DNA of 12,777 bases from Bacteroidota bacterium (GTDB lineage: Bacteria > Bacteroidota > Bacteroidia > Chitinophagales > Chitinophagaceae): NCBI GenBank assembly GCA_023429365.1, contig JAEYVW010000486.1, positions 1-12,777 of the forward strand, read 5' to 3'. The notes under the pieces were generated by a model. That model saw only the letters and a program-made list of their open reading frames with translations. It ran no database searches and was not told the DNA's origin. A program made the position numbers and the translations under genes. Of the stretch, positions 767 to 12,777 are shown one piece after another (positions within the stretch are counted from its first letter, which is position 1; every line of letters starts with the position of its first letter).

Positions 767-899
767 GGATACTAGATACTGGATACTGGATGTTAGATAC
801 TGGATTTATCCGGTTATGCGATAATAGATCTTTGCCTTAATCTTTTTATCAAGTATCAAGTATCCAGTATCCAGTATCTAACATCCAGCATCCTGCATC
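767..899. repeat. Inverted pair of heptamer tandem arrays in the ggt-barrel spacer
   Basis: Two arrays of tandem 7-base units face each other. The left arm, 767-808, has six units of consensus RGATACT read on the + strand. The right arm, 851-899, has seven units read on the - strand with consensus GATACTG or GATGCTG. Both arms contain the variant unit GATGTTA, and around it they share a perfect 20-base inverted repeat (786-805 against 869-888, 63 bases apart). The transcript could fold into a long stem, so the element may stop transcription from the upstream gene. It may also be a dispersed repeat family. No transposase or target duplication was seen. The layout is read directly from the bases; the function is unknown. 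Confidence 0.8.
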
Positions 900-1990: not shown

Positions 1991-4819
1991 ATGAAGCAGT
2001 TGTTTACCCTTTGCCTGGCATTTTTTACTTGTTACTTATCCACAGCGCAGGTTATTCTCACCGGCAACCCCATCGTCATCGAAAACTCATTGCCCGGAAA
2101 TCATATTTCGGAATGGGGAGTTCCTAATTTTCGCGACAATCGCATTTCAGGCTTTAGTACAAAAATGAGCTTAAACAGCGGTGAAACGGTACGCTTTAAG
2201 ATCAATGTACAGGGCGGCGCAAACTATTCATTAAGGATTTATCGTATCGGCTACTATAGCGGCAAGGGCGCCAGGCTGATGCACAATGCTGGCTTTTTAT
2301 CCGGTACGGCCCAACCAGAAGCCATGTATAATGAGGAAACGGGTATGATCGACTGCGATAACTGGAGCGAATCTTACTCCTGGGGTATCCCCTCCAACGC
2401 AGTATCGGGTATGTATATCGCCCGTATCGAAAGAGTGGGTGGCGGTAGCAACCATATAGTATTTATTGTACGCAACGACTCCCGTAATTCAGATCTATAC
2501 CTGCAGCTGCCCGATGCCAACTGGCAGGCTTACAACGCCTATGGCGGCGCTTCTTTATACGACGGCAATACCGAATACGAAGAAGGTCACGCGACCAAGG
2601 TTTCTTATAACCGTCCCATTTTCCCCTATAACGTATTGTTCAATACAGATGGCCGTGGCGCCGACTGGTATATGAACGCGGAATACCCCATGATCCGCTG
2701 GCTGGAACGCAATGGTTACGACGTGACCTATACCAGCTGTAATGACGTGGCACGCAATGGCTATAAGCTTTTAAACCATAAAGTATTTATCTCTATCGGC
2801 CACGACGAATACTGGTCGAAGAGCATGCGCGATAATGTAGAAGCTGCCCGTGATGCAGGTGTTCACCTGGCCTTTTTCAGTGGCAATGAAGTGTACTGGA
2901 AAACAAGGTGGGAAGAGACTGTCGATGGTGAAGACCGTGTGCTGGTATGCTATAAAGAAGGTACCCTGGCCAACGGCGCCCTGGGCGAACGCACCTGCGG
3001 TTTTAAATGTGATGAAACTTCATCAGAATGGACCGGGCTTTGGAGAACAGGTGAAAACTATGATGGAGGCAAACCCGAAAACAGCCTGACCGGGCAGATC
3101 AGCTGGACAGAAGCGCCGCAAGACGGTTCGATCAAGGTCCCGGCATACTATAAAAAATTACGTTTCTGGCGCCATACCACCATTCCGGATATGGAAGACG
3201 GGCAGACTACCACGCTCGGCTCGGCCACCCTCGGCTTTGAGTGGGATTTTGAGCAGGAACAGTTCAAAGATTACTATCCCAAAGGCCGTATGACACTGTC
3301 GAGCACCACCTATGGCCCGCTTACGCATAAGCTTTCACTTTATCGCCATCCCAGCGGCGCCCTGGTTTTTGGTGCCGGCACCATCCAGTGGTCATGGGGT
3401 CTTGACGGTAATCACTGGGGCGGAGCGCCTGAGACCAATAAGAACATGCAGCAGGCCACCGTTAATCTTTTTGCCGATATGGGTGTGCAGCCTTATTCAC
3501 TGCAATCGAACCTGGTGGCAGCCAGCCCCTCCACCGATAATATTGCACCTACTTCTATCATTTCATCCCCCTCCAGCGGGTCGGTTTTTGCGGCACGTGC
3601 CCCGGTAACGATCAGTGGTACAGCCACCGATGCGCAGGTAGTGGCCGGTGTGGAAGTTTCGATCGACGGTGGAGTGACCTGGAATGTAGCCGAACTGGAT
3701 AAACTGGATGGAAGTGTATCCTGGACTTATACCTGGATCCCTTCCGAACTCGGAACTTTAAATGTAAAATGCAGGGCATTTGATGATACGGGTAATATGG
3801 AAATTCCCGGATCCGGTATATCTATCACAATCGGTAATCCAGGGTTCCCCTTTACGATCTTCGAGCCTACGTCGAAACCCCTGCTCCATTTCTGGGATCC
3901 CGCGATCAATCTCGGTGTCCGGTTTAAGCCAAATGTAAACGGCTATATTACCGGCGTTCGCTTTTACAAAGGGCCCAACAATGACGGTACCCATATAGGC
4001 AACCTCTGGTCAAGTGACGGACAGAAACTGGCCGAAGTGACCTTTACCAACGAAACAGCAGGCGGCTGGCAGGAAGCCCTGTTCTCAACCCCGGTACCCG
4101 TGATAGCCGGAACGGTCTATACCGCATCGTATTATAGTCCCTCGGGTAATTTCTCGATCGACCCGCAGTTCTTCGCCTCAGCAGGGTATCCAGAAGGATC
4201 GCCCAGCATCTGGCCGGTACAGGCGCTGTCCAATCCCGATGGCGGTAATGGCGTGTACGCTTATAATAACGGGCCGGCATTCCCCAGCTCGGTTTATAAC
4301 CCTGCTAATTATTTTGTAGATATTGTTTTCACTAATACACTGGCCGCACCGGCTTCAATGAGTGGATCGGTGACCCTGCAGGGAAGATCTGCTGCGCCCA
4401 ACGCCAGCTGGCAGGTGCCGCTGACCGTTGAATTCTTTGAGCCGGGTAATAATACGACACCAGCACATTCATTCAACGTTAATACCGATCAAAACGGTAA
4501 CTTTACGATAGATGATGTACCCCTGGGAACTTTCACGATCACGGTTAAAAATCCACATACCTTAAAGAGAGTAAAATCTGCACAGAATATTGTTGCAGGC
4601 AATAACTCGTTTGACTTTGGGACATTATTGGAAGGTGACGCAAACAATAATAATACAGTAAACCTGTTTGACTTTTCAATATTGCTGGGTACATACAATA
4701 AATCCACCGGTAATCCGGGATTTGATGCACGTGCCGACTTCAACAATAATGGAACCATCAACCTTTTCGATTTTTCACTTTTATTGGGCACATACAACCA
4801 GGCCGGTGAAACGCCATAA
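1991..4819 (+). CDS. Secreted N,N-dimethylformamidase-beta-like protein with DUF4082 and C-terminal dockerin-like module
   Basis: This is a 942-residue multidomain secreted protein. Residues 1-19 are a Sec signal peptide ending STA before Gln20. Residues about 25-505 match the family named for the large subunit of N,N-dimethylformamidase (DMFA2_C): an N-terminal beta part with LRIYRIGYYSGKGAR (81-95), then a core with NAYGGASLYD, GHDEYWS (270-276) and FFSGNEVYWKTRW (295-307). The known enzyme carries iron on two Tyr and one Glu. Tyr274 and Glu300 are plausible ligands, but I could not verify the alignment. Then come an Ig-like domain (about 518-615, SIDGGVTWN), DUF4082 (about 621-781, GYITGVRFYKG, GGWQEALF), a small beta-sandwich (about 789-878) and two dockerin-like EF-hand repeats (881-942). 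There is no T9SS sorting domain. The substrate is unknown; amide hydrolysis is only a family-based guess, and no small-subunit gene is visible. The gene is probably co-transcribed with the one 33 bases downstream. Confidence 0.85.
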   Translation: MKQLFTLCLAFFTCYLSTAQVILTGNPIVIENSLPGNHISEWGVPNFRDNRISGFSTKMSLNSGETVRFKINVQGGANYSLRIYRIGYYSGKGARLMHNAGFLSGTAQPEAMYNEETGMIDCDNWSESYSWGIPSNAVSGMYIARIERVGGGSNHIVFIVRNDSRNSDLYLQLPDANWQAYNAYGGASLYDGNTEYEEGHATKVSYNRPIFPYNVLFNTDGRGADWYMNAEYPMIRWLERNGYDVTYTSCNDVARNGYKLLNHKVFISIGHDEYWSKSMRDNVEAARDAGVHLAFFSGNEVYWKTRWEETVDGEDRVLVCYKEGTLANGALGERTCGFKCDETSSEWTGLWRTGENYDGGKPENSLTGQISWTEAPQDGSIKVPAYYKKLRFWRHTTIPDMEDGQTTTLGSATLGFEWDFEQEQFKDYYPKGRMTLSSTTYGPLTHKLSLYRHPSGALVFGAGTIQWSWGLDGNHWGGAPETNKNMQQATVNLFADMGVQPYSLQSNLVAASPSTDNIAPTSIISSPSSGSVFAARAPVTISGTATDAQVVAGVEVSIDGGVTWNVAELDKLDGSVSWTYTWIPSELGTLNVKCRAFDDTGNMEIPGSGISITIGNPGFPFTIFEPTSKPLLHFWDPAINLGVRFKPNVNGYITGVRFYKGPNNDGTHIGNLWSSDGQKLAEVTFTNETAGGWQEALFSTPVPVIAGTVYTASYYSPSGNFSIDPQFFASAGYPEGSPSIWPVQALSNPDGGNGVYAYNNGPAFPSSVYNPANYFVDIVFTNTLAAPASMSGSVTLQGRSAAPNASWQVPLTVEFFEPGNNTTPAHSFNVNTDQNGNFTIDDVPLGTFTITVKNPHTLKRVKSAQNIVAGNNSFDFGTLLEGDANNNNTVNLFDFSILLGTYNKSTGNPGFDARADFNNNGTINLFDFSLLLGTYNQAGETP
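4631..4816 (+). other. Dockerin-like module of the DMFase-like protein
   Basis: Residues 881-942 of the preceding protein contain two 12-residue EF-hand loops of dockerin type I form: DANNNNTVNLFD (883-894) and DFNNNGTINLFD (916-927). Calcium-ligand positions 1, 3, 5, 9 and 12 are D, N, N, N, D in both. Each loop is followed by the helix FSxLLGTYN. The module ends the protein. In true dockerins, positions 10 and 11 help choose the cohesin partner; here both repeats have Leu-Phe. Confidence 0.8.
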
Positions 4820-4852
4820 GTTCATTTGATAAATAATTAAACCTTCTAACAC

Positions 4853-6703
4853 ATGATACCGACTTCGATGTTTAAATGGTCTATACCTGGATCATCACTG
4901 TCAAAGAAACTCTGGCTTGCTGCCGTGGCGTTTGTCATGACCCTCGCAAAAGCAGATGCGCAACATGTAAATATTGAATTCAACCAGCCGACTATAAATG
5001 CGACTCCGGGAAGTAATTTCCAGGTGATCGTGCGGGCAGATTTTCTCACTGCTGACCCGCTGAATGCAATCGAAACGCATTTTACGTTCGACGTGACAAA
5101 GCTCCAAGTTACTGCGATCACGAACCTGTCAACAGGTGTTATACCCTTTATTGTTATTTCGCCTTCATTCAATAATGCCGCGGGTACAGTTGATTTTGCT
5201 GCAGGTACAACGGGTCCATTCCCTACTGCAGATTTTAACCTGTATTCCGTCGATTTCACTGTTCTGCCAGGTGCAACCTCTGGTTCTACACCTTTGACAT
5301 TTAATTCGGCATCAACCCTGGCAGCGGGGCCTGGTGGTGTAGATATCCTCAACACCATCATCAATTCCAACGTTATCATTACTGCTGTAGGTTGTACTAC
5401 ACCAACAGCTACCATCAGCGCTCCCGGTGGCACCACTACCTGTAATAGCCAGACCTTTAACCTGATCCTCGCATCAGCTACAGGTGAAAGTCCATTTGAT
5501 GTAACCATCGATGGCCCAAACGGCAGCGCGACCTATAACGACATCACAGTTGGCTCCCCGATCACATCATTTGTTCCACCGACGCTGAATATTTTTGCAA
5601 CTCCATCACCTGTTACCTATACTGATGCCGTATACACTTTAGGAGTAAGGTTTACCAGTTCGGTACCCGGGTTTATAAGAGGAGTTCGTTTTTACGGTGC
5701 TGAAGAAGGTTCAGCAGCACCTGGAAACTATACCGGCCAGTTGTGGACTGATGGAGGCACCCTGCTCACAAGCGGTGTATTCACCGGGGTAACTACCGAA
5801 GCCTGGAATGAACTTATATTTCCCCAGCCCATCCTGATTACACCGGGCACTACTTATGTGGCCTCTTACCATACAGGTAGCTATCCTGCTTATGCCAGTA
5901 CACCAAATGGTACGGTTAATGCTATTACCAACGGACCGCTGACAGCTCTCGCCAGTGGCGGGGTTTTTAACCAGGGACCAACACCAGCGTTTCCGAATAT
6001 TTCGGTTCAGGGCAATTATTGGGTCGACGTTCTTTTTTCACCCAATCAATACAGCTTTGACCTGACCGGGATTACCGATGCCAACGGCTGTGTGAATACG
6101 GGTGCCTTGCAAACGCTCTCAATCACTTCGGTTGATTGTGAAACACTGCCAGTGAGCTTGCTGGGTCTTTCTGCTACTCCTAAAGACAATTCGGTGGTAC
6201 TGAAATGGTCCACCGCGTCTGAGATCAATAACAAGGGTTTTGAGGTACAACGTAAGACAGAAACCGGCGACTGGGTTGCCATCGGTTTTGTACAGGGCTC
6301 CGGCTCCAGCCAGAGCACTCAGTATTACGATTATACCGATAATAATCTCCAGCCCAACCGTTACTATTATCGTTTAAGACAGGTAGATATCGATGGCAGG
6401 TTTGAATATTCACCGGTTGTATCGGCGGTGATCGGCAGCGCTGAAAAATTCAGCCTCGAACAAAACTACCCCAACCCATTCCGCAGTGAGACTGTGATTA
6501 GATTTACACTCCCCGGCAAAACCAATGTGAAATTGTCGCTTTATGATATACAGGGCAGGCTGGTGAGGACCCTTGTGAATGGTTCCAGGGATAAAGGCAC
6601 CCATGCGGTAACAGTAAATTCGACAACCCTTACCAGCGGGCTTTATTATTACAAGCTCGAGTCTGAAAACTTTTCGGCTGTGAAGAAGATGACCATTCAA
6701 TAA
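4853..6703 (+). CDS. T9SS-secreted protein with N-terminal cohesin-like domain and DUF4082
   Basis: This 616-residue protein is probably surface-exposed. Residues 1-36 form a signal peptide (hydrophobic 20-31, ADA before Gln37). Met6 is an alternative start; ATG 4853 is kept, and neither has a Shine-Dalgarno. Residues about 38-178 resemble a cohesin: INATPGSNFQVIV, HFTFDVTKLQV, GTVDFAAG, YSVDFTVLPGA and TPLTFNSAST reproduce the usual order of strands. Next is a PKD-like repeat with Cys181, Cys197, Cys413 and Cys429, split by an inserted DUF4082 domain (about 245-395, GFIRGVRFYGAEEG, AWNELIF). An FN3-like domain follows (about 431-527, VVLKWSTASEINNKGFEVQRK), then a type A T9SS sorting domain (533-616). 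The protein has no enzyme domain, so a scaffold or binding role is likely. It lies 33 bases after the DMFase-like gene and is closed by a terminator at 6746. The cohesin call is moderately sure; the sorting-domain call is very sure. Confidence 0.85.
   Translation: MIPTSMFKWSIPGSSLSKKLWLAAVAFVMTLAKADAQHVNIEFNQPTINATPGSNFQVIVRADFLTADPLNAIETHFTFDVTKLQVTAITNLSTGVIPFIVISPSFNNAAGTVDFAAGTTGPFPTADFNLYSVDFTVLPGATSGSTPLTFNSASTLAAGPGGVDILNTIINSNVIITAVGCTTPTATISAPGGTTTCNSQTFNLILASATGESPFDVTIDGPNGSATYNDITVGSPITSFVPPTLNIFATPSPVTYTDAVYTLGVRFTSSVPGFIRGVRFYGAEEGSAAPGNYTGQLWTDGGTLLTSGVFTGVTTEAWNELIFPQPILITPGTTYVASYHTGSYPAYASTPNGTVNAITNGPLTALASGGVFNQGPTPAFPNISVQGNYWVDVLFSPNQYSFDLTGITDANGCVNTGALQTLSITSVDCETLPVSLLGLSATPKDNSVVLKWSTASEINNKGFEVQRKTETGDWVAIGFVQGSGSSQSTQYYDYTDNNLQPNRYYYRLRQVDIDGRFEYSPVVSAVIGSAEKFSLEQNYPNPFRSETVIRFTLPGKTNVKLSLYDIQGRLVRTLVNGSRDKGTHAVTVNSTTLTSGLYYYKLESENFSAVKKMTIQ
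4964..5386 (+). other. Cohesin-like domain
   Basis: Residues 38-178 of the T9SS-secreted protein. Cohesins are nine-stranded jelly-roll domains that bind dockerins. Seen here: a start of the form V-x-I-x-F followed by a PG-turn (TPGSNFQVIVRA), the fold's usual FxFDxxKLQVxxI strand, GTVDFAAG, and a closing LTFNSAST strand before an acidic turn. It could be another carbohydrate-binding-like jelly roll, since cohesins and CBM-like domains look alike in single sequences. Dockerin-like modules on both neighbouring genes favour the cohesin reading. Confidence 0.6.
6449..6700 (+). other. Type IX secretion C-terminal sorting domain (type A)
   Basis: Residues 533-616 show the full pattern of the type A sorting domain: FSLEQNYPNPFRSETVIRF, then LPGKTNVKLSLYDIQGRLV, then LTSGLYYYKL and the final KKMTIQ. 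It directs passage through the outer membrane by the Por/Spr/Gld machinery and is normally removed when the protein is attached to the cell surface or released. It is the only such domain visible in this window. Confidence 0.95.
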
Positions 6704-6745
6704 ATAACCTGTCAGAAGTTGGAGTTCACCGTTCTGGAATTAATT

Positions 6746-6771
6746 CCCGGGCAGTGAACTTCCGGGTTTTT
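6746..6771 (+). terminator. Intrinsic terminator after the cohesin-like gene
   Basis: CCCGG (6746-6750) and CCGGG (6762-6766) form a GC stem around an 11-base loop and are followed by five T (6767-6771). An alternative stem, AGTTCAC 6723-6729 with GTGAACT 6754-6760, overlaps it and could compete. It lies 43 bases after the stop codon and separates this operon from the gene at 7000. Confidence 0.65.
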
Positions 6772-6796
6772 GAAACTGCGACTTTTTATATCTTTG
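6769..6796 (+). promoter_or_regulatory. Candidate promoter for the PQQ-dehydrogenase-like gene
   Basis: TATCTTTG at 6789-6796 is a perfect TAnnTTTG -7 element. The nearest TTTG (6769-6772) is 16 bases upstream, shorter than the usual 19-21, and overlaps the T run of the preceding terminator. Transcription would begin near 6803, giving a leader of almost 200 bases. Confidence 0.4.
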
Positions 6797-6900
6797 GATA
6801 CTTCCTCTTTATCCAGTACCGTTGAATACCCCTTCTACTATTCTATAAAATCTCCGGCCGGTTCATACAAGCACCGTTGTATCGCTACAGGCCAAATACC

Positions 6901-6936
6901 AGGTTAAGGTAAAGGTTAAGGTTTAGGTAAAGGCAA
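6901..6936 (+). repeat. Tandem hexamer array, six units of AGGTWA
   Basis: Six head-to-tail hexamers lie 64 bases before the start at 7000: AGGTTA, AGGTAA, AGGTTA, AGGTTT, AGGTAA, AGGCAA. The + strand is nearly free of C. The array lies in the likely leader of the dehydrogenase-like gene. Function is unknown; slipped-strand length change is possible. Confidence 0.85.
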
Positions 6937-6953
6937 ATTCTGAGTCAGCATAA

Positions 6954-6973
6954 CATTTCATAAGAATGAAATG
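6954..6973 (+). promoter_or_regulatory. Perfect 8-base-pair hairpin in the leader before 7000
   Basis: CATTTCAT (6954-6961) pairs fully with ATGAAATG (6966-6973) around the loop AAGA, ending 26 bases before the ATG at 7000. A weaker 6-base stem, ATACAA/TTGTAT, lies at 6865-6882. These could affect translation or be a protein-binding palindrome. Only the symmetry is seen. Confidence 0.4.
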
Positions 6974-6999
6974 CCGTAGGACCATTAAATACTATCGTA

Positions 7000-9729
7000 A
7001 TGAAATCATTATTTCTCTTACCCTGTCTGTGCCTGTTGAGCGGCATCCTGTATGCCCAGACTTTTGCTGATCCGAATTTTGCTGCGATCCCTATCAGCTC
7101 GGGCTGGGACCAGCCGGTGGGCGCGGCTTTCAATAGCACGGGCCAGCAATTATTTGTGTGGGAAAGGGGCGGAAAGGTTTTTGTGTGCAACCGCGATGGC
7201 AGCGGTAATTATATCAAACAAACACAGCCTGTATTGGATATCAGCCCCGAAGTCGGTGATTGGAATGCGCATGGCATGCTGGGTTTTGCCCTGGATCCAA
7301 ATTTCGAAAGTAATGGACTGATCTATGTGATGTATGTTGTAAACCGTAACCACTTACTGCATTTTGGTACCGGCCAATACAATCCCAATGCGCCTGATGG
7401 CAATATGGCTACTATAGGACGGATCACCCGCTACAAAACGATCACAAGTGGCAGTGACCTTATAACCGATTATAATACACGTTTTGTATTACTGGGAGAA
7501 ACCAAGTCTACCGGTATGCCGATCCTGCACGACTCGCATGGTGTAGGGTCACTGGTATTTGCCGCCGATGGTACACTCCTGGCTTCTATTGGTGATGCAG
7601 CCAGCTACGAAGGCAACGATGCGGGCAGTTACCCAGGTACCTATTGGCAGGATGCACTTGCCGACGGCATCATCCGCCCCGAAGAGAATGTGGGCGCTTT
7701 TCGTTCACAACTGGTAAATAGCATGAGCGGTAAAATTCTGCGCATCAGCCCGCAGACCGGTGACGGCATCCCCAGCAACCCGTTTTATGATCCTGGTGCG
7801 CCGCGCGCGCCTAAATCAAGGGTTTGGGCCCTGGGTGTACGCAACGCATTCCGCTTCTCTATCAAACCTGGTTCCGGTTCACATGATCCTGCCGCGGGTG
7901 ATGTGGGGGAAATATTTTATGGTGATGTAGGTTTCTCCAGTTGGGAAGAACTCAGCGTAGTTACACAAGGTGGGCAAAACATGGGATGGCCGATCTACGA
8001 AGGAAATGAATACACGCTTGCACCTGATGGCGTAGGCCCGCGGTATGTAGACCTGAATGTAGAAAACAAAGACGAGCCCAACCCGCTTTATAATGGTGGC
8101 AGTTGCAACCAGCAATATTTTTTATTCAAGCAACTGATCCGTAATGCTAATCCCGATCAGGATAAATCGGTTTATAACCCCTGCAATCCTTCGGAATTGA
8201 TTGGAAGCGGTAATCGTTTTTATCATAAACGTCCTTCACTCGAATGGTCGCACGCACACAAATGGGCCAGGGTGCCGATCTTCAATGGCAACAACCCCGA
8301 TGTAGCCATGATTGGCTCTGTCGAATCTGGCGTACCGGGTGTACCCTTCCCCGGAAGTTGCGCCGTCGGTGGTGTATGGTACGATGGTACTACCTATCCT
8401 GCTGAATATAAAAATTCATTCTTCACCGGCGATTATGCCGGCAACCCCGCTCCACCCGTGTTTGTGAGCGCCTGGGTAAAAAGACTCAAGTTTGATTATA
8501 CCGATCATGTGGTACAGGTTGAGAATTTCGCATCTGATTTCAATGAACTGGTATGTATTGCGACCAATCCCATTGATGGCAGCATCGTTACTGTAGAACT
8601 CGCTTTATCTAACGGTGTAAAGCAAATCGTTTATGGCGGTAACCAGCCCCCTGTCGCAAAACCGACAGCCGATAAGATCTATGGTCCGTCACCGTTGACG
8701 GTTAATTTCAACGGCAGTGGTTCCTTCGATCCTACACAGGGAGGCAGTATCGTTTCTTATTCATGGGATTTTGATGGCGCCACACCAGCAACAAGCAACG
8801 TGGCGAATCCCGGCAATATCCAGTTTACCAGCGCACCAGGCGTTCCAAAAAAATATGTGGTCACACTCACCGTTACCGATAATGGCGGAGCTACACATCT
8901 GGACAGCATTATTATTTCGGTCAATAACACGCCTCCTATTGTAAACATTACCAGCCCGGATATCACGACATATGATCCCGGCCCTGATAATATTAACCTG
9001 GATTGTATTGCGGAGGTAACTGATGCGGAACATGGACCCGGGCAGTTAAAATATGAGTGGCAGACTACATTAAAACATAATTCGCACGAGCACCGTGAGG
9101 CGATCAAGAATGAAGTCAATAGCAGTACAACTATTCAAAGGATCGGGTTTATAGGCTCAGATATTTATTACTGGCTGGTAGAACTTACGGTAACGGATGA
9201 AGCAGGTCTGTCAACAACTGATGCGGTTGAGATCCATCCTAACCTGGGTGGTGCACAGGCAACTTTAAATGGCTCGATCACACTGGAAGGCCGCCCGGCT
9301 GCGCCCAATACACAATGGCAGATACCACTGGTCGTAGATTTTTATTCAGCAAGTAATTTGAGTACACCTGCATTTACCCGCAATGTGACGACAACAAATA
9401 ATGGAAGCTTTACTATAACCAATATACCAACAGGAATGTACAAGGTTGCTGTAAAGAATATCCATACCTTGCGAAAAGTAAGCGGCCTTGAAAGCTTTAG
9501 TGGTGGTCAGACCAAGTCCATGAACTTCGGCACATTAAAAGAAGGTGATTCAAATAATAATAACTCCGTCAATCTATTTGATTTCTCATTGATGCTGGAT
9601 ACGTACAACAAATCGACGGGAAATACCGGGTTTGATGCCCGATGTGATTTCAACGGTGATGGAATTGTGAATCTTTTTGACTTTTCGCTTTTGTTGGGAA
9701 GCTATAATACTTCGGGTGAGAACCCATAA
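7000..9729 (+). CDS. Secreted PQQ-dependent sugar dehydrogenase-like protein (GSDH family) with PKD and dockerin-like module
   Basis: This is a 909-residue secreted protein. Residues 1-19 are a signal peptide (LYA before Gln20). Residues about 32-545 form a six-bladed propeller of the glucose/sorbosone dehydrogenase family, quinoproteins that oxidise sugars or other alcohols with PQQ. Family hallmarks visible: WNAHGMLGFALDP (88-100), HDSHGVGSLVF followed by DGTLLASIGD (177-199, with His180 in the place of the catalytic His), GVRNAFRFS (279-287, Arg281-Asn282 as the PQQ/substrate pair), and GDVGFSSWEEL with GGQNMGWP (308-331). After it come a PKD domain (about 548-642, YSWDFDG, VTLTVTDNGG), a second Ig/PKD-like domain (about 643-746), a small beta-sandwich (about 754-845) and two dockerin-like repeats (848-909). 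No haem-binding CxxCH and no T9SS sorting domain are visible. The substrate is unknown. It has its own candidate promoter and a strong terminator. Confidence 0.85.
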   Translation: MKSLFLLPCLCLLSGILYAQTFADPNFAAIPISSGWDQPVGAAFNSTGQQLFVWERGGKVFVCNRDGSGNYIKQTQPVLDISPEVGDWNAHGMLGFALDPNFESNGLIYVMYVVNRNHLLHFGTGQYNPNAPDGNMATIGRITRYKTITSGSDLITDYNTRFVLLGETKSTGMPILHDSHGVGSLVFAADGTLLASIGDAASYEGNDAGSYPGTYWQDALADGIIRPEENVGAFRSQLVNSMSGKILRISPQTGDGIPSNPFYDPGAPRAPKSRVWALGVRNAFRFSIKPGSGSHDPAAGDVGEIFYGDVGFSSWEELSVVTQGGQNMGWPIYEGNEYTLAPDGVGPRYVDLNVENKDEPNPLYNGGSCNQQYFLFKQLIRNANPDQDKSVYNPCNPSELIGSGNRFYHKRPSLEWSHAHKWARVPIFNGNNPDVAMIGSVESGVPGVPFPGSCAVGGVWYDGTTYPAEYKNSFFTGDYAGNPAPPVFVSAWVKRLKFDYTDHVVQVENFASDFNELVCIATNPIDGSIVTVELALSNGVKQIVYGGNQPPVAKPTADKIYGPSPLTVNFNGSGSFDPTQGGSIVSYSWDFDGATPATSNVANPGNIQFTSAPGVPKKYVVTLTVTDNGGATHLDSIIISVNNTPPIVNITSPDITTYDPGPDNINLDCIAEVTDAEHGPGQLKYEWQTTLKHNSHEHREAIKNEVNSSTTIQRIGFIGSDIYYWLVELTVTDEAGLSTTDAVEIHPNLGGAQATLNGSITLEGRPAAPNTQWQIPLVVDFYSASNLSTPAFTRNVTTTNNGSFTITNIPTGMYKVAVKNIHTLRKVSGLESFSGGQTKSMNFGTLKEGDSNNNNSVNLFDFSLMLDTYNKSTGNTGFDARCDFNGDGIVNLFDFSLLLGSYNTSGENP
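9541..9726 (+). other. Dockerin-like module of the PQQ-dehydrogenase-like protein
   Basis: Residues 848-909 carry two EF-hand loops, DSNNNNSVNLFD (850-861) and DFNGDGIVNLFD (883-894), each followed by a helix of the form FSLxLxxYN. Over 62 aligned residues, 47 are identical to the module that ends the DMFase-like protein. Positions 10-11 of both loops are again Leu-Phe, so the two proteins should recognise the same partner. Confidence 0.8.
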
Positions 9730-9751: not shown

Positions 9752-9784
9752 AAAAAGGTCGTTCTACCAGGACGGCCTTTTTTG
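9752..9784 (+). terminator. Intrinsic terminator after the PQQ-dehydrogenase-like gene
   Basis: GGTCGTTC (9757-9764) pairs with GGACGGCC (9770-9777) over eight positions, two of them G-U, around the loop TACCA. Six T follow (9778-9783) and five A precede. It lies about 25 bases after the stop codon. Confidence 0.85.
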
Positions 9785-10104: not shown

Positions 10105-12777
10105 ATGAAAAGATTTTTTACATGCCTGGCACTCGTGTGCCTTACCAGTCTCTTATTTGCTGCCGCGTCCCCTACTGTTCCGGGTAGTGGCCTGAGTTTC
10201 TCCGACATCGATGGCACCCGTCTCAGTTTACGATTTACATCGGGTAATGGCTCGCAGCGCATTGTGGTCGTAAAAGAAGGTAGCCCTGTGACCGGCCTGC
10301 CACAAAATGGCCGTGATTACACCAGCAACAGCAATTTCGGGACAGCTGGTACCGAATTCGGTCCCGAAGGAGAATATGTTGTCGCCAGCAAATCAAGCTG
10401 GAATAGTTTCACCGTACAGAACCTTAAGCCGGGTACCGTTTATCATATCGCTGTTTTTGAGAACAATGGCAGTGGCGCAACCGCGGAATATCTTACACTG
10501 CCGCTTACCGGTAGCCAGATGACTGCCGTGGCTCCTACCGTTCAGGCTGCTTTCAGTTCATCTACCAAAACCGGCAATAGCGTTACATTAAATCTTACCA
10601 AGGGAAACGGCAGCGGCCGGCTTGTAATTGCCAGAAAATTTGGCCCCGTCAATGCGACACCGACTGATCTGTCTTTTTATTCGTATGATGAAAATTTTGG
10701 TGCAGGTGCAAAAATGAATACTGACAACTATGTCGTATATCGCGGTGCAGGAAGTTCCGTTACTGTTAAACAACTTGAACCCAATACAACTTATCACTTC
10801 GCTGTATTTGAATACAACGGCAACAACTCACCGATATACCTTCAACCTGGTGGCAGCTATTCACTTATCACCAATGCAGGTCCCAGTACCGCTTCATCAA
10901 ATATTGGACTGAGTTATGTTGAAGGAAACAGCTTTCGTATAAGTTGCACACGCGGCAATGGTTCACACCGCCTGTTTATCATGAGCAAAAATGGCCCGGT
11001 CACATCTGTACCTGTAAACGGGCAGGTGTATAATACGAATCGTGTTTTTGGTACAGCCGGCACTGAGATCGCCGAAGGAGAATTTGTAGTAGGCGGTTTG
11101 ACCGGCAATACGGTGGATGTGACCAACCTCGAAGGCAATACCACTTATTATTTCCGCATTTTCGATTATGATGTGGATGCAGCAGGAAATACCTACTATC
11201 TTACCAGCAGCTCGGCGATCGGCAGCGGCAGTTCTGCGCTGATCCCGACACTTATCGGCAGTAACCTGAAGATCACAAATCTTACAGGCACCACGGCTTC
11301 CATCGGGCTAACGCATGGCAATGGAAGCATGCGCATGGTGATCGTAAAAGAAGAAAGCCCGGTTGATGCCGTGCCAGAAGACTACACTACCTATTCAGGC
11401 AACGCAAATTTCGGAAGTGGTGCACAGATCACAGCCGGTAATTATGTAACGCATAAAGCCATCAATGGAAATCCGTTTACCATCAACAACCTGAAACCCG
11501 GGTTTACCTATCATGTCGCCATCTATGAGTTCAATGGTTCCAATGCGCCAATGTATTCCCGCTCGGCAGCAACGATATCGTTTACGATCCCGGTTGAACC
11601 GACGAATTGTAGCACAGCACCCTGGTCTACTTTTATTGAAGGCAGTTCACTTCGTTTTATCTGGACCAATGGTAATGGTGCCCGCAGGATTGTCGTAGCC
11701 AGGAAAGACGCAGCCGTCACCGCGGCGCCTGTTGACGGTGTTAATTATACTGCGAATACAAAATTTGGACAGGGTGATGTTTTGGAAGACGGGCAGTTTG
11801 TCGTGTACAATGGTACAGGTACAAATGTTGACCTTGAAAACCTTGAGATCGGATCGACTTATCATTTCGCGGTTTACGAATATAATGTCGGCGCTAACAA
11901 CAATCCCGATTATCTTACTTCCTGCTCGCTGAAGGGCTCTGCATCGACAGCGACAACGCCTACGTTTCAAACAAACATTATTGGTGCAACGAATATACAG
12001 GCCACTCAGGTGACGATCAGCTTTACAAAAGGAAACGGTGCAAGTCGGCTGGTGCTGATGAGGGAAAATGAAGCCGTAAATAAAGCGCCACAGGATTATA
12101 CAAAATATACTTATAACAGTGGGTTTGGTTTGGGTAACAACCTGGGTGATGGCAATTACGTGGTACTTGTTTCGGGTGGTACCGGCAATTTCACCGTCAC
12201 TGGTTTGAAACCGCTGACGACTTATCATATCTCTGCTTTTGAATTTAATGGATCTTCCACTCCCGCATACTTAAGGGATATTTCTGCAGTGTATAATTTC
12301 ACGACACCAGACGTTCCTGAAGCATCCACGCCTACCACGCCTTCCAGCAACCCGTCGTTCTCCAGTATTGATGGTAACAAGTTTACTTTTAAATGGACCA
12401 ATGGAAATGGTGAAAAAAGAATCGTGGTGATGAAAAAAGATGAAGTGCCAGGCTTTGTTCCTGCATCTGCTACAAACTACGCTGCCAATAGTGAGTTTGG
12501 CAACGGCATCGACCTGGGTGGTGGCGAATACGTGGTGTACAATGGATCTGCAGGATCGGTTGAGATCAGCAACCTGGAACATTCTTCAAGTTACTACCTG
12601 AAAGTATTTGAATACAACGGTACAGGTAACCTCATACGGTATCTTACAGCATCTACGTTGACAGCGAACGGTGCAACAGTTTCCGCTCCTGCCACCGCCA
12701 GCTTTGATGTCACGACAACTGTGGGCAACAATAGTGTGAACTTTAGCTGGGAAAAAGGTAATGGTGCAGGTAGAATA
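10105..12777 (+). CDS. Giant secreted protein of FN3-like tandem repeats (3' end outside window)
   Basis: I translated this frame by hand: 891 codons with no stop, running off the right edge. Residues 1 to about 20 are a signal peptide (MKRFFTCLALVCLTSLLFAA). The rest is a tandem array of units of about 120 residues. Each unit has a strand ending in a GNGxxR[IL]V motif, a Pro and Tyr near the middle, FGxG, YVV, and an FN3-like end of the form LxPxTTYHFAVFEYNG followed by YL. The GNG motifs begin at residues 47, 167, 284, 405, 523, 643, 767 and 885, so seven units are complete and the eighth is cut. Such repeats occur in very large surface or secreted Bacteroidota proteins, probably as stalks or adhesins. 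A T9SS sorting domain beyond the window would be expected but is not seen. The ATG at 10105 is set by the signal peptide. No enzyme domain is visible. Confidence 0.85.
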   Translation, partial: MKRFFTCLALVCLTSLLFAAASPTVPGSGLSFSDIDGTRLSLRFTSGNGSQRIVVVKEGSPVTGLPQNGRDYTSNSNFGTAGTEFGPEGEYVVASKSSWNSFTVQNLKPGTVYHIAVFENNGSGATAEYLTLPLTGSQMTAVAPTVQAAFSSSTKTGNSVTLNLTKGNGSGRLVIARKFGPVNATPTDLSFYSYDENFGAGAKMNTDNYVVYRGAGSSVTVKQLEPNTTYHFAVFEYNGNNSPIYLQPGGSYSLITNAGPSTASSNIGLSYVEGNSFRISCTRGNGSHRLFIMSKNGPVTSVPVNGQVYNTNRVFGTAGTEIAEGEFVVGGLTGNTVDVTNLEGNTTYYFRIFDYDVDAAGNTYYLTSSSAIGSGSSALIPTLIGSNLKITNLTGTTASIGLTHGNGSMRMVIVKEESPVDAVPEDYTTYSGNANFGSGAQITAGNYVTHKAINGNPFTINNLKPGFTYHVAIYEFNGSNAPMYSRSAATISFTIPVEPTNCSTAPWSTFIEGSSLRFIWTNGNGARRIVVARKDAAVTAAPVDGVNYTANTKFGQGDVLEDGQFVVYNGTGTNVDLENLEIGSTYHFAVYEYNVGANNNPDYLTSCSLKGSASTATTPTFQTNIIGATNIQATQVTISFTKGNGASRLVLMRENEAVNKAPQDYTKYTYNSGFGLGNNLGDGNYVVLVSGGTGNFTVTGLKPLTTYHISAFEFNGSSTPAYLRDISAVYNFTTPDVPEASTPTTPSSNPSFSSIDGNKFTFKWTNGNGEKRIVVMKKDEVPGFVPASATNYAANSEFGNGIDLGGGEYVVYNGSAGSVEISNLEHSSSYYLKVFEYNGTGNLIRYLTASTLTANGATVSAPATASFDVTTTVGNNSVNFSWEKGNGAGRI
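10171..12777 (+). repeat. Protein-coding tandem repeat, about 360 bases per unit, 7 full units plus a partial one
   Basis: The codons for the GNG motif start at 10243, 10603, 10954, 11317, 11671, 12031, 12403 and 12757, giving periods of 360, 351, 363, 354, 360, 372 and 354 bases. The units are clearly related as protein but have diverged as DNA, which points to old duplications kept by selection and not to recent expansion. Unit edges are approximate. Confidence 0.8.

What the first reader, a model, noticed from the sequence alone, without database searches (positions are those of the whole stretch)
1991..9729. Possible compact cohesin-dockerin system: one cohesin-like surface protein between two dockerin-bearing enzymes
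Seen: two enzyme-like proteins end in near-identical dockerin-like modules, and the gene between them encodes a protein that starts with a cohesin-like domain and ends with a T9SS sorting domain. Known: cohesin-dockerin pairs assemble cellulosomes in Firmicutes, and both domains occur outside cellulosomes. Inference: here a T9SS-anchored, single-cohesin protein would collect a DMFase-like and a PQQ-dehydrogenase-like enzyme on the cell surface. The cargo is oxidoreductase and amidase-like and includes no glycoside hydrolase, which would be unlike known cellulosomes.
Basis: partly seen in the sequence, partly recalled or inferred. Interest (0 to 1): 0.75.

Follow-up and report, generated by a model that had tools for sequence, protein, structure and literature searches.

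The report
Surface cohesin carrier for dockerin enzymes
A Bacteroidota-type DNA fragment encodes a secreted "socket" protein flanked by two enzymes that carry the matching "plug", and comparison with relatives suggests that plug and socket really fit, which points to a small, dedicated way of fixing enzymes to an exported carrier, unlike the large cellulose-degrading complexes in which such plugs are best known.

Summary
The middle protein starts with a true cohesin (Pfam above cut-off; model pLDDT 93; all 50 Foldseek rows shown are cohesins or chains containing one) and ends in a type A T9SS tail; both flanking enzymes end in X-module plus dockerin, closest to cellulosomal type II X-dockerins. 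These ends are 60% identical, not "near-identical".

The two domains belong together. Among 394 family genomes the same nine have the strong dockerin and the strong cohesin, one each, in neighbouring genes. Over 18 operons cohesin and dockerin distances correlate after removing the rest of both proteins (partial r 0.59); the neighbouring X-module does not (-0.04). The two dockerin repeats vary in step. Among 240 relatives of both enzymes, 52 end in dockerin, 117 in a T9SS tail, none in both, 71 in neither.

Best reading: a dedicated cohesin/X-dockerin pair that fixes tail-less enzymes to a T9SS-exported carrier, one enzyme per cohesin, so no cellulosome. The third gene is not part of the conserved pair; one contig pairs a carrier with a tail-bearing enzyme. 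How tail-less enzymes cross the outer membrane is open; riding along with the carrier is the most novel reading. T9SS-tailed scaffoldins were proposed before in Cloacimonadota (PMC8542988).

The parts
1991..4819 (+). P1, 942 aa: signal peptide (by eye), DMFA2_C amidase-like domain (aa 81-475), Big_7 (520-587), DUF4082 (638-776), X-module, C-terminal dockerin; no T9SS tail found
4373..4594 (+). X-module of P1 (weak CarboxypepD_reg-like match), directly before the dockerin
   Evidence: together with the dockerin it matches type II X-dockerin dyads (2b59_B E 5.8e-6; Foldseek 5g5d_B and 2b59_B)
4595..4816 (+). Dockerin of P1, two F-hand repeats (DANNNNTVNLFD, DFNNNGTINLFD); positions 10-11 are LF in both
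   Evidence: Pfam Dockerin_1 aa 882-931; custom profile aa 869-942; repeats printed
4853..6703 (+). P2, 616 aa: signal peptide (by eye), N-terminal cohesin, linker, DUF4082, further region, type A T9SS C-terminal domain
4961..5395 (+). Cohesin of P2 (aa 37-181)
   Evidence: Pfam PF00963 aa 46-158, 27.3 bits; profile vs PDB, 1g1k E 1.2e-6; AlphaFold2 pLDDT 93.0, pTM 0.85; Foldseek and VIA
5624..6025 (+). DUF4082 of P2 (aa 258-391); absent from the P2 of genome G638
   Evidence: L156
6467..6700 (+). T9SS type A C-terminal sorting domain of P2 (aa 539-616)
   Evidence: PF18962 45 bits, TIGR04183 48.5 bits
7000..9729 (+). P3, 909 aa: signal peptide (by eye), GSDH (sugar-dehydrogenase-like) propeller (aa 37-341), PKD domains, X-module, C-terminal dockerin; no T9SS tail found
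9283..9507 (+). X-module of P3
9508..9726 (+). Dockerin of P3 (repeats DSNNNNSVNLFD, DFNGDGIVNLFD); positions 10-11 LF as in P1
   Evidence: Pfam aa 849-898, 26.9 bits; 69% identical to the P1 dockerin
6769..6796 (+). Bacteroidota-type promoter-like motif (TTTG-N-TAnnTTTG, motif recalled) upstream of P3; weak evidence that P3 may have its own promoter
   Evidence: 2 matches in the window, 0.44 expected; 19 of 200 shuffles had 2 or more
9752..9782 (+). Terminator-like stem of 14 pairs after P3

Best explanation
P2 is a T9SS-exported carrier protein whose N-terminal cohesin binds the C-terminal X-dockerin of P1 (and, in this organism, also of P3). The enzymes have a Sec signal peptide but no T9SS tail; the dockerin stands in for the tail, so the enzyme is fixed to the carrier and, through it, placed at the cell surface (or, if the type A substrate is released, in a secreted complex). 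Each carrier has one cohesin and therefore holds one enzyme at a time. Cohesin and dockerin have changed together between relatives, so the pair is tuned to its own operon. Shown by computation: domains and folds, adjacency, one-to-one co-occurrence, covariation, and that dockerin and T9SS tail do not occur together in the two enzyme families as listed. Inferred: physical binding, calcium dependence, surface location, and the compartment in which the two meet.
For: Cohesin. X-dockerin. T9SS tail on P2; found in 7 of the 9 neighbouring-gene P2 orthologues (TIGR04183 over its cut-off in the 6 put). T9SS translocon SprA over the cut-off in 9 of 9 genomes with the pair. Co-occurrence in 394 family genomes: strong dockerin (3.3e-25 or lower) in 9, strong cohesin (4.1e-25 or lower) in 9, the same 9, one copy each, neighbouring genes. 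Covariation, 18 operons: dockerin~cohesin partial r 0.59 given the P1 body and the rest of P2, 0 of 5000 label shuffles; X-module~cohesin -0.04; jackknife 0.52-0.64; thinned to 14 operons 0.51, 0 of 2000. Window versus contig c20352: P1 body 88% and P2 remainder 77% identical, dockerin 52% and cohesin 29%. Dockerin repeats agree at positions 10-11 within a protein in 0.725 of positions, between proteins in 0.211, 0 of 10000 shuffles, n = 20. Tail or dockerin: P1 family 27 dockerin / 35 tail / 0 both / 58 neither of the 120 listed; P3 family 25 / 82 / 0 / 13 of the 120 listed.
Confidence: 0.75

Rival explanations
1. Cohesin-like and dockerin-like modules are here independent Ig-like and EF-hand-like modules of surface proteins that do not bind each other.
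For: Both domains are known outside cellulosomes (recalled; title of Peer et al. 2009 in the reference list seen); binding was not tested; Pfam scores are only a few bits above the cut-offs; on contig 17928 a cohesin protein pairs with a tail-bearing, dockerin-less P1 relative.
Against: Same nine of 394 genomes, one copy each, neighbouring genes; covariation beyond the rest of the proteins, with the X-module as negative control.
Confidence: 0.09
2. The pair binds, but P1 and P3 stay in the periplasm or leave by another route; the dockerin is a retention or storage device, or docks the enzyme only after separate export, rather than sorting it.
For: P1 and P3 have Sec signals and no T9SS tail; the paper listings seen (25 of 105; 20 of 970) showed me no tail-less T9SS passenger.
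Against: Listed relatives of both enzymes carry either their own T9SS tail or the dockerin, never both, which suggests the same destination.
Confidence: 0.12
3. A cellulosome-like complex: P2 collects P1, P3 and further dockerin enzymes on one scaffold for joint attack on a polymer.
For: Two dockerin enzymes flank P2; 6 of 81 P2 relatives have two cohesins; operons with several cohesins exist in three other Bacteroidia genomes.
Against: One cohesin in the window's P2; one strong dockerin protein per genome in the nine genomes; no glycoside hydrolase domain in P1 or P3.
Confidence: 0.04

Closest known systems
Single-cohesin cell-surface proteins ScaD and ScaG of Clostridium thermocellum (OlpA, OlpC; equation of names recalled)
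   Same: one cohesin on a surface protein that takes a dockerin enzyme directly (PMC5141474, passages); OlpC and OlpA cohesins are among the structural matches
   Different: there a Gram-positive with type I dockerins of cellulosomal enzymes; here a T9SS type A tail and X-dockerins on an amidase-like and a sugar-dehydrogenase-like enzyme
Type II cohesin / X-dockerin of cellulosomes (CipA X-dockerin, 2b59, 5g5d)
   Same: X-module plus dockerin as one C-terminal unit; best match over the whole unit in sequence and fold; role in surface attachment (PMC5141474)
Cellulosome-like complex proposed for Ca. Stygibacter (Cloacimonadota)
   Same: dockerin enzymes and a cohesin scaffoldin with a C-terminal domain for attachment to its own surface, with a T9SS review cited (PMC8542988, passages)
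   Different: there one 3,755-aa scaffoldin with tandem cohesins and CBMs and several hydrolases; here one cohesin and a dedicated neighbouring enzyme
T9SS type A substrates with their own C-terminal domain
   Same: P2 is one by profile; many relatives of P1 and P3 are such by profile
   Different: P1 and P3 lack the tail and carry an X-dockerin at that end

Membership tests
Cohesin (PF00963) | profile match over the curated cut-off | tested here: met
   27.3 bits, cut-off 24.1; family profile vs PDB cohesins, best E 1.2e-6
Cohesin (PF00963) | cohesin jelly-roll fold | tested here: met
Cohesin (PF00963) | binds a dockerin | not testable with these tools
   only indirect: co-occurrence and covariation
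Dockerin (PF00404) | two F-hand repeats with Ca-ligand residues at positions 1, 3, 5, 12 (positions recalled) | tested here: met
   both window dockerins over the cut-off; all these positions are D or N in the four window repeats. In relatives 51 of 52 dockerins could be parsed; the parser itself demanded D at 1 and, in repeat 2, D/N at 3 and 5; free positions: repeat 1 pos 5 D/N 49 of 51, pos 12 D 51 of 51, pos 3 N only 29 of 51; repeat 2 pos 12 D 50 of 51
Dockerin (PF00404) | calcium-dependent folding and binding | not testable with these tools
   none
X-dockerin dyad of type II | Ig-like X-module directly before the dockerin | tested here: met
T9SS type A substrate | Sec signal and C-terminal TIGR04183/PF18962 domain on P2 | tested here: met
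   tail; signal peptide read by eye, no predictor was run
T9SS type A substrate | the same domain on P1 and P3 | tested here: not met
   no Por_Secre_tail/TIGR04183 match in P1 or P3 at E <= 1 nor with the local tail profile
Cellulosome | multi-cohesin scaffoldin | tested here: not met
   one cohesin in P2; 6 of 81 relatives have two
Cellulosome | plant-polysaccharide hydrolases as dockerin cargo | tested here: not met
   DMFA2_C and GSDH domains, no GH domain in P1 or P3
N,N-dimethylformamidase | catalytic iron site | tested here: inconclusive
   DMFA2_C 328 bits; two tyrosines, in HDEYW and GNEVYW, align with N-acetyl-(R)-beta-phenylalanine acylase 8huy; that they bind iron is recalled; the third ligand was not aligned
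PQQ sugar dehydrogenase (GSDH) | PQQ and calcium site residues | not tested
   only the family match, 70 bits, and weak hits to hedgehog-interacting protein propellers

The most novel reading that the evidence does not exclude
Two-component T9SS substrate: the enzyme has handed its secretion tail to a neighbour. P1 (and P3) bind the cohesin of P2 in the periplasm and cross the outer membrane as folded passengers of P2's C-terminal domain, so that the dockerin works as a detachable secretion ticket, with pair specificity kept by cohesin-dockerin coevolution.
Probability: 0.3. Interest if true: 0.86.

Novelty: new variant of a known kind. Interest (0 to 1): 0.63.

Why it matters
It would extend cohesin-dockerin assembly to Chitinophagaceae-type Bacteroidota (the named full-length P2 relatives are Chitinophagaceae MAGs), to cargo without a glycoside hydrolase domain, and to a minimal form of one carrier and one enzyme. 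A passage in PMC5831590 says that the Bacteroidetes genome studied there, like others, lacks cohesins and dockerins, and one in PMC6247017 says that two soil cellulose degraders of the phylum lack dockerin and scaffoldin proteins. If the passenger route is right, a clear question becomes testable: can the T9SS export a tail-less protein that rides on a substrate? The operon series also offers natural cohesin/X-dockerin pairs of differing type on matched proteins, useful for reading specificity from sequence.

Tried and rejected
Six of these loci (L054, L078, L016, L022, L046, L052) were put to to obtain genome handles; G001 (from L054) became the centre of the order search.

The order search with the P2 region aa 37-369 matched 14 of 396 genomes and the family search 25 of 394; most of these matches cover only the linker and DUF4082, so the cohesin-only profile A3 was used for counting. 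A class search with the dockerin profile matched 3 of 365; the genus of G426 holds only G426.

Considered and dropped: P1-P2-P3 as a conserved three-gene unit. P1-P2 length matches, counted by eye: 11, of which 10 with a dockerin P1 and one (17928) with a tail-bearing P1. Considered and dropped: a DUF4082-based interaction; G638's P2 has cohesin and tail but no DUF4082. The sigma-70 promoter scan was uninformative (24 found, 22 expected). Is each P3 dockerin most like its own operon's P1 dockerin? P0251: first; P0242: second after P0131 (the list holds duplicates, 34 rows for 27 proteins). Two cases only, not used as evidence. Residue-level coupling was not attempted (too few pairs). No complex could be predicted with the tool.

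Flaws in the covariation test: c14665's P1 is a 771-aa fragment, so its 'body' includes its dockerin (its removal is covered by the jackknife); contig 221857 has two P2-type proteins and I used P0047, not P0013; in proteins with more than one cohesin the last was used; label shuffles do not respect kinship, which the two control distances only partly replace; G499 (P2 cut by the contig end) and G638 (no DUF4082) were left out of the 20 operons. The T9SS-tail profile was iterated on the same protein ends that it then counted.

Full report
What is there. Three genes on the + strand: P1 1991-4819, P2 4853-6703 (33 bases after P1) and P3 7000-9729. P1 has DMFA2_C, Big_7, DUF4082 and a C-terminal dockerin; P2 an N-terminal cohesin, DUF4082 and a T9SS tail; P3 a GSDH propeller, PKD domains and a C-terminal dockerin. 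The cohesin and both dockerins pass the Pfam cut-off. NCBIfam classes the P2 tail as type A. P1 and P3 show no such tail. The two enzymes' ends are 60% identical over 122 residues.

The pair in other genomes. No whole genome is held for the window. In 394 genomes of the family of G225, the dockerin profile A2 has 11 genomes with a match at E <= 1e-5: nine strong (3.3e-25 or lower) and two weak (G281 3.3e-6, G533 7.4e-6). The cohesin profile A3 has ten: the same nine (4.1e-25 or lower) and one weak (G520, 3.1e-6). G281 and G533 have no A3 match. In all nine the cohesin gene is the next gene after the dockerin gene; in G499 it is cut by the contig end. Each has one strong copy of each. With plain Pfam models the dockerin passes its cut-off in 7 of 9 and the cohesin in 5 of 9, with some extra matches under the cut-off. 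The first look scores only part of the candidates in each genome, so counts are lower bounds. A T9SS tail was found in 7 of the 9 P2 orthologues; G499's is cut and G524's open frame ends without it, in a locus that looks frame-broken. Upstream, a gene with the C-terminal letters of the window's gamma-glutamyltransferase appears in seven of nine loci (tested by Pfam only in the window), and a beta-barrel gene was identified in L151. In G638 P2 is only cohesin plus tail with no DUF4082, so those two modules are the core. All nine genomes have SprA over the cut-off. Among the 81 best of 401 P2 relatives, 77 have a cohesin, 6 of them two; rows from P0082 on share only part of the protein and were not counted.

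Do they fit each other? With 18 usable ones, dockerin and cohesin distances correlate at 0.63; after removing the distances of the P1 body and of the rest of P2 the partial correlation is 0.59 (0 of 5000 label shuffles). The X-module, which lies between body and dockerin, gives -0.04. Jackknife range 0.52-0.64; thinned to 14 operons 0.51 (0 of 2000); contig-length pairs plus window (11) 0.58 (1 of 2000); genome loci plus window (8) 0.43 (64 of 2000). The clearest case: window against contig c20352, where P1 bodies are 88% and P2 remainders 77% identical while dockerins are 52% and cohesins 29%. Within each dockerin the two repeats agree at positions 10-11 in 0.725 of positions against 0.211 between proteins (0 of 10000, n = 20). 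That is what dockerins with two equivalent binding faces would show; such dual binding is described for cellulosomal dockerins (titles and abstract starts in the listing). Contig-length pairing is not proof: one coincidence (3404 bases) cannot be real, and an eleventh P1-P2 pair (contig 17928, P0151 and P0018) joins a cohesin carrier with a P1 relative that has its own T9SS tail and no dockerin. That pair counts against a strict rule.

What does the dockerin replace? Of the 120 listed P1 relatives (of 7328 found), 27 end in the dockerin, 35 in a T9SS tail, none in both, 58 in neither. Of the 120 listed P3 relatives (of 1421), 25, 82, none, and 13. Two unrelated enzyme families thus show either tail or dockerin. 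With a tail-bearing cohesin protein next door, the simplest reading is that the dockerin connects the enzyme to a neighbour's tail. This is inference; the two classes also differ in ancestry, as the dockerin forms are mostly each other's nearest relatives.

How would it work? Shown: domains, folds, adjacency, covariation. Inferred: Sec export of all three proteins (signal peptides read by eye), calcium loading, one-to-one cohesin/X-dockerin binding, and export of P2 by its type A tail. Type A substrates leave with PorV and are released or linked to surface lipopolysaccharide (PMC10994853, passages). The T9SS moves folded proteins (PMC9251779, passages). The open step is how tail-less P1 and P3 cross the outer membrane; passenger export on P2 is the most novel option. 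The listings seen (25 of 105 papers, 20 of 970) showed me no report of tail-less T9SS passengers; the library holds only openly licensed papers.

Prior art. PMC8542988 (passages) infers dockerin enzymes and a multi-cohesin scaffoldin with a C-terminal attachment domain in Ca. Stygibacter, so a T9SS-tailed cohesin scaffold is not new as an idea. PMC5141474 (passages) describes single-cohesin anchors and X-dockerins. PMC10266427 (passages) reports dockerin matches in gut Bacteroidota. The search 'cohesin, dockerin, type IX secretion' gave 7 papers, all listed; some searches listed 25 of 140, 25 of 105, 20 of 31 and 15 of 461. None of the titles and abstract starts seen describes this pair. Peer et al. 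2009 on non-cellulosomal modules is not held, so a mention there cannot be excluded.

Wider system. In three other Bacteroidia genomes, larger operons combine dockerin proteins, proteins with both cohesin and dockerin, and cohesin proteins with a T9SS tail: G134 (1734-aa dockerin protein, 2754-aa protein with four cohesins and a dockerin, 594-aa protein with two cohesins and tail), G074 and G050. Some proteins there carry dockerin and tail together, against a general either-or rule.

Verdict. Most likely a real, dedicated cohesin/X-dockerin pair with a T9SS-tailed carrier: new variant of a known kind. Binding is likely, surface placement probable, passenger export possible.

Noticed in passing
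L158 4433-14558, L183, L184 (genome G134): Operon with dockerin-ending proteins, a 2754-aa protein with four cohesins and its own dockerin, and a 594-aa protein with two cohesins and a T9SS tail: the layout of a two-level scaffold in a genome of the searched order. Two further dockerin proteins there also carry a T9SS tail.
   Followed up: partly
L199 (G050) and L200 (G074): Two more Bacteroidia loci with very long dockerin proteins next to cohesin proteins with T9SS-like tails.
   Followed up: partly
L081, L084 (genome G004, contig C17) and contig C12: A Bacteroidota MAG with five PF00963 matches, four over the cut-off, but no match to the dockerin profile A2.
   Followed up: no
window 10105-12777: Protein of repeated fn3-like units (repeat seen by eye; fn3 matches) that runs off the window end; not part of the pair.
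   Followed up: no
window 767-893: Intergenic stretch of 7-base repeats in both orientations (GGATACT / TATCAAG, TATCCAG), by eye a possible imperfect palindrome after the gamma-glutamyltransferase gene.
   Followed up: no
   Followed up: partly
L155 1430-9632 (genome G524): The transferase and P1 reading frames look interrupted and P2 lacks the T9SS tail in its open frame; SprA is also in three pieces in this genome, which suggests assembly errors rather than decay.
   Followed up: no
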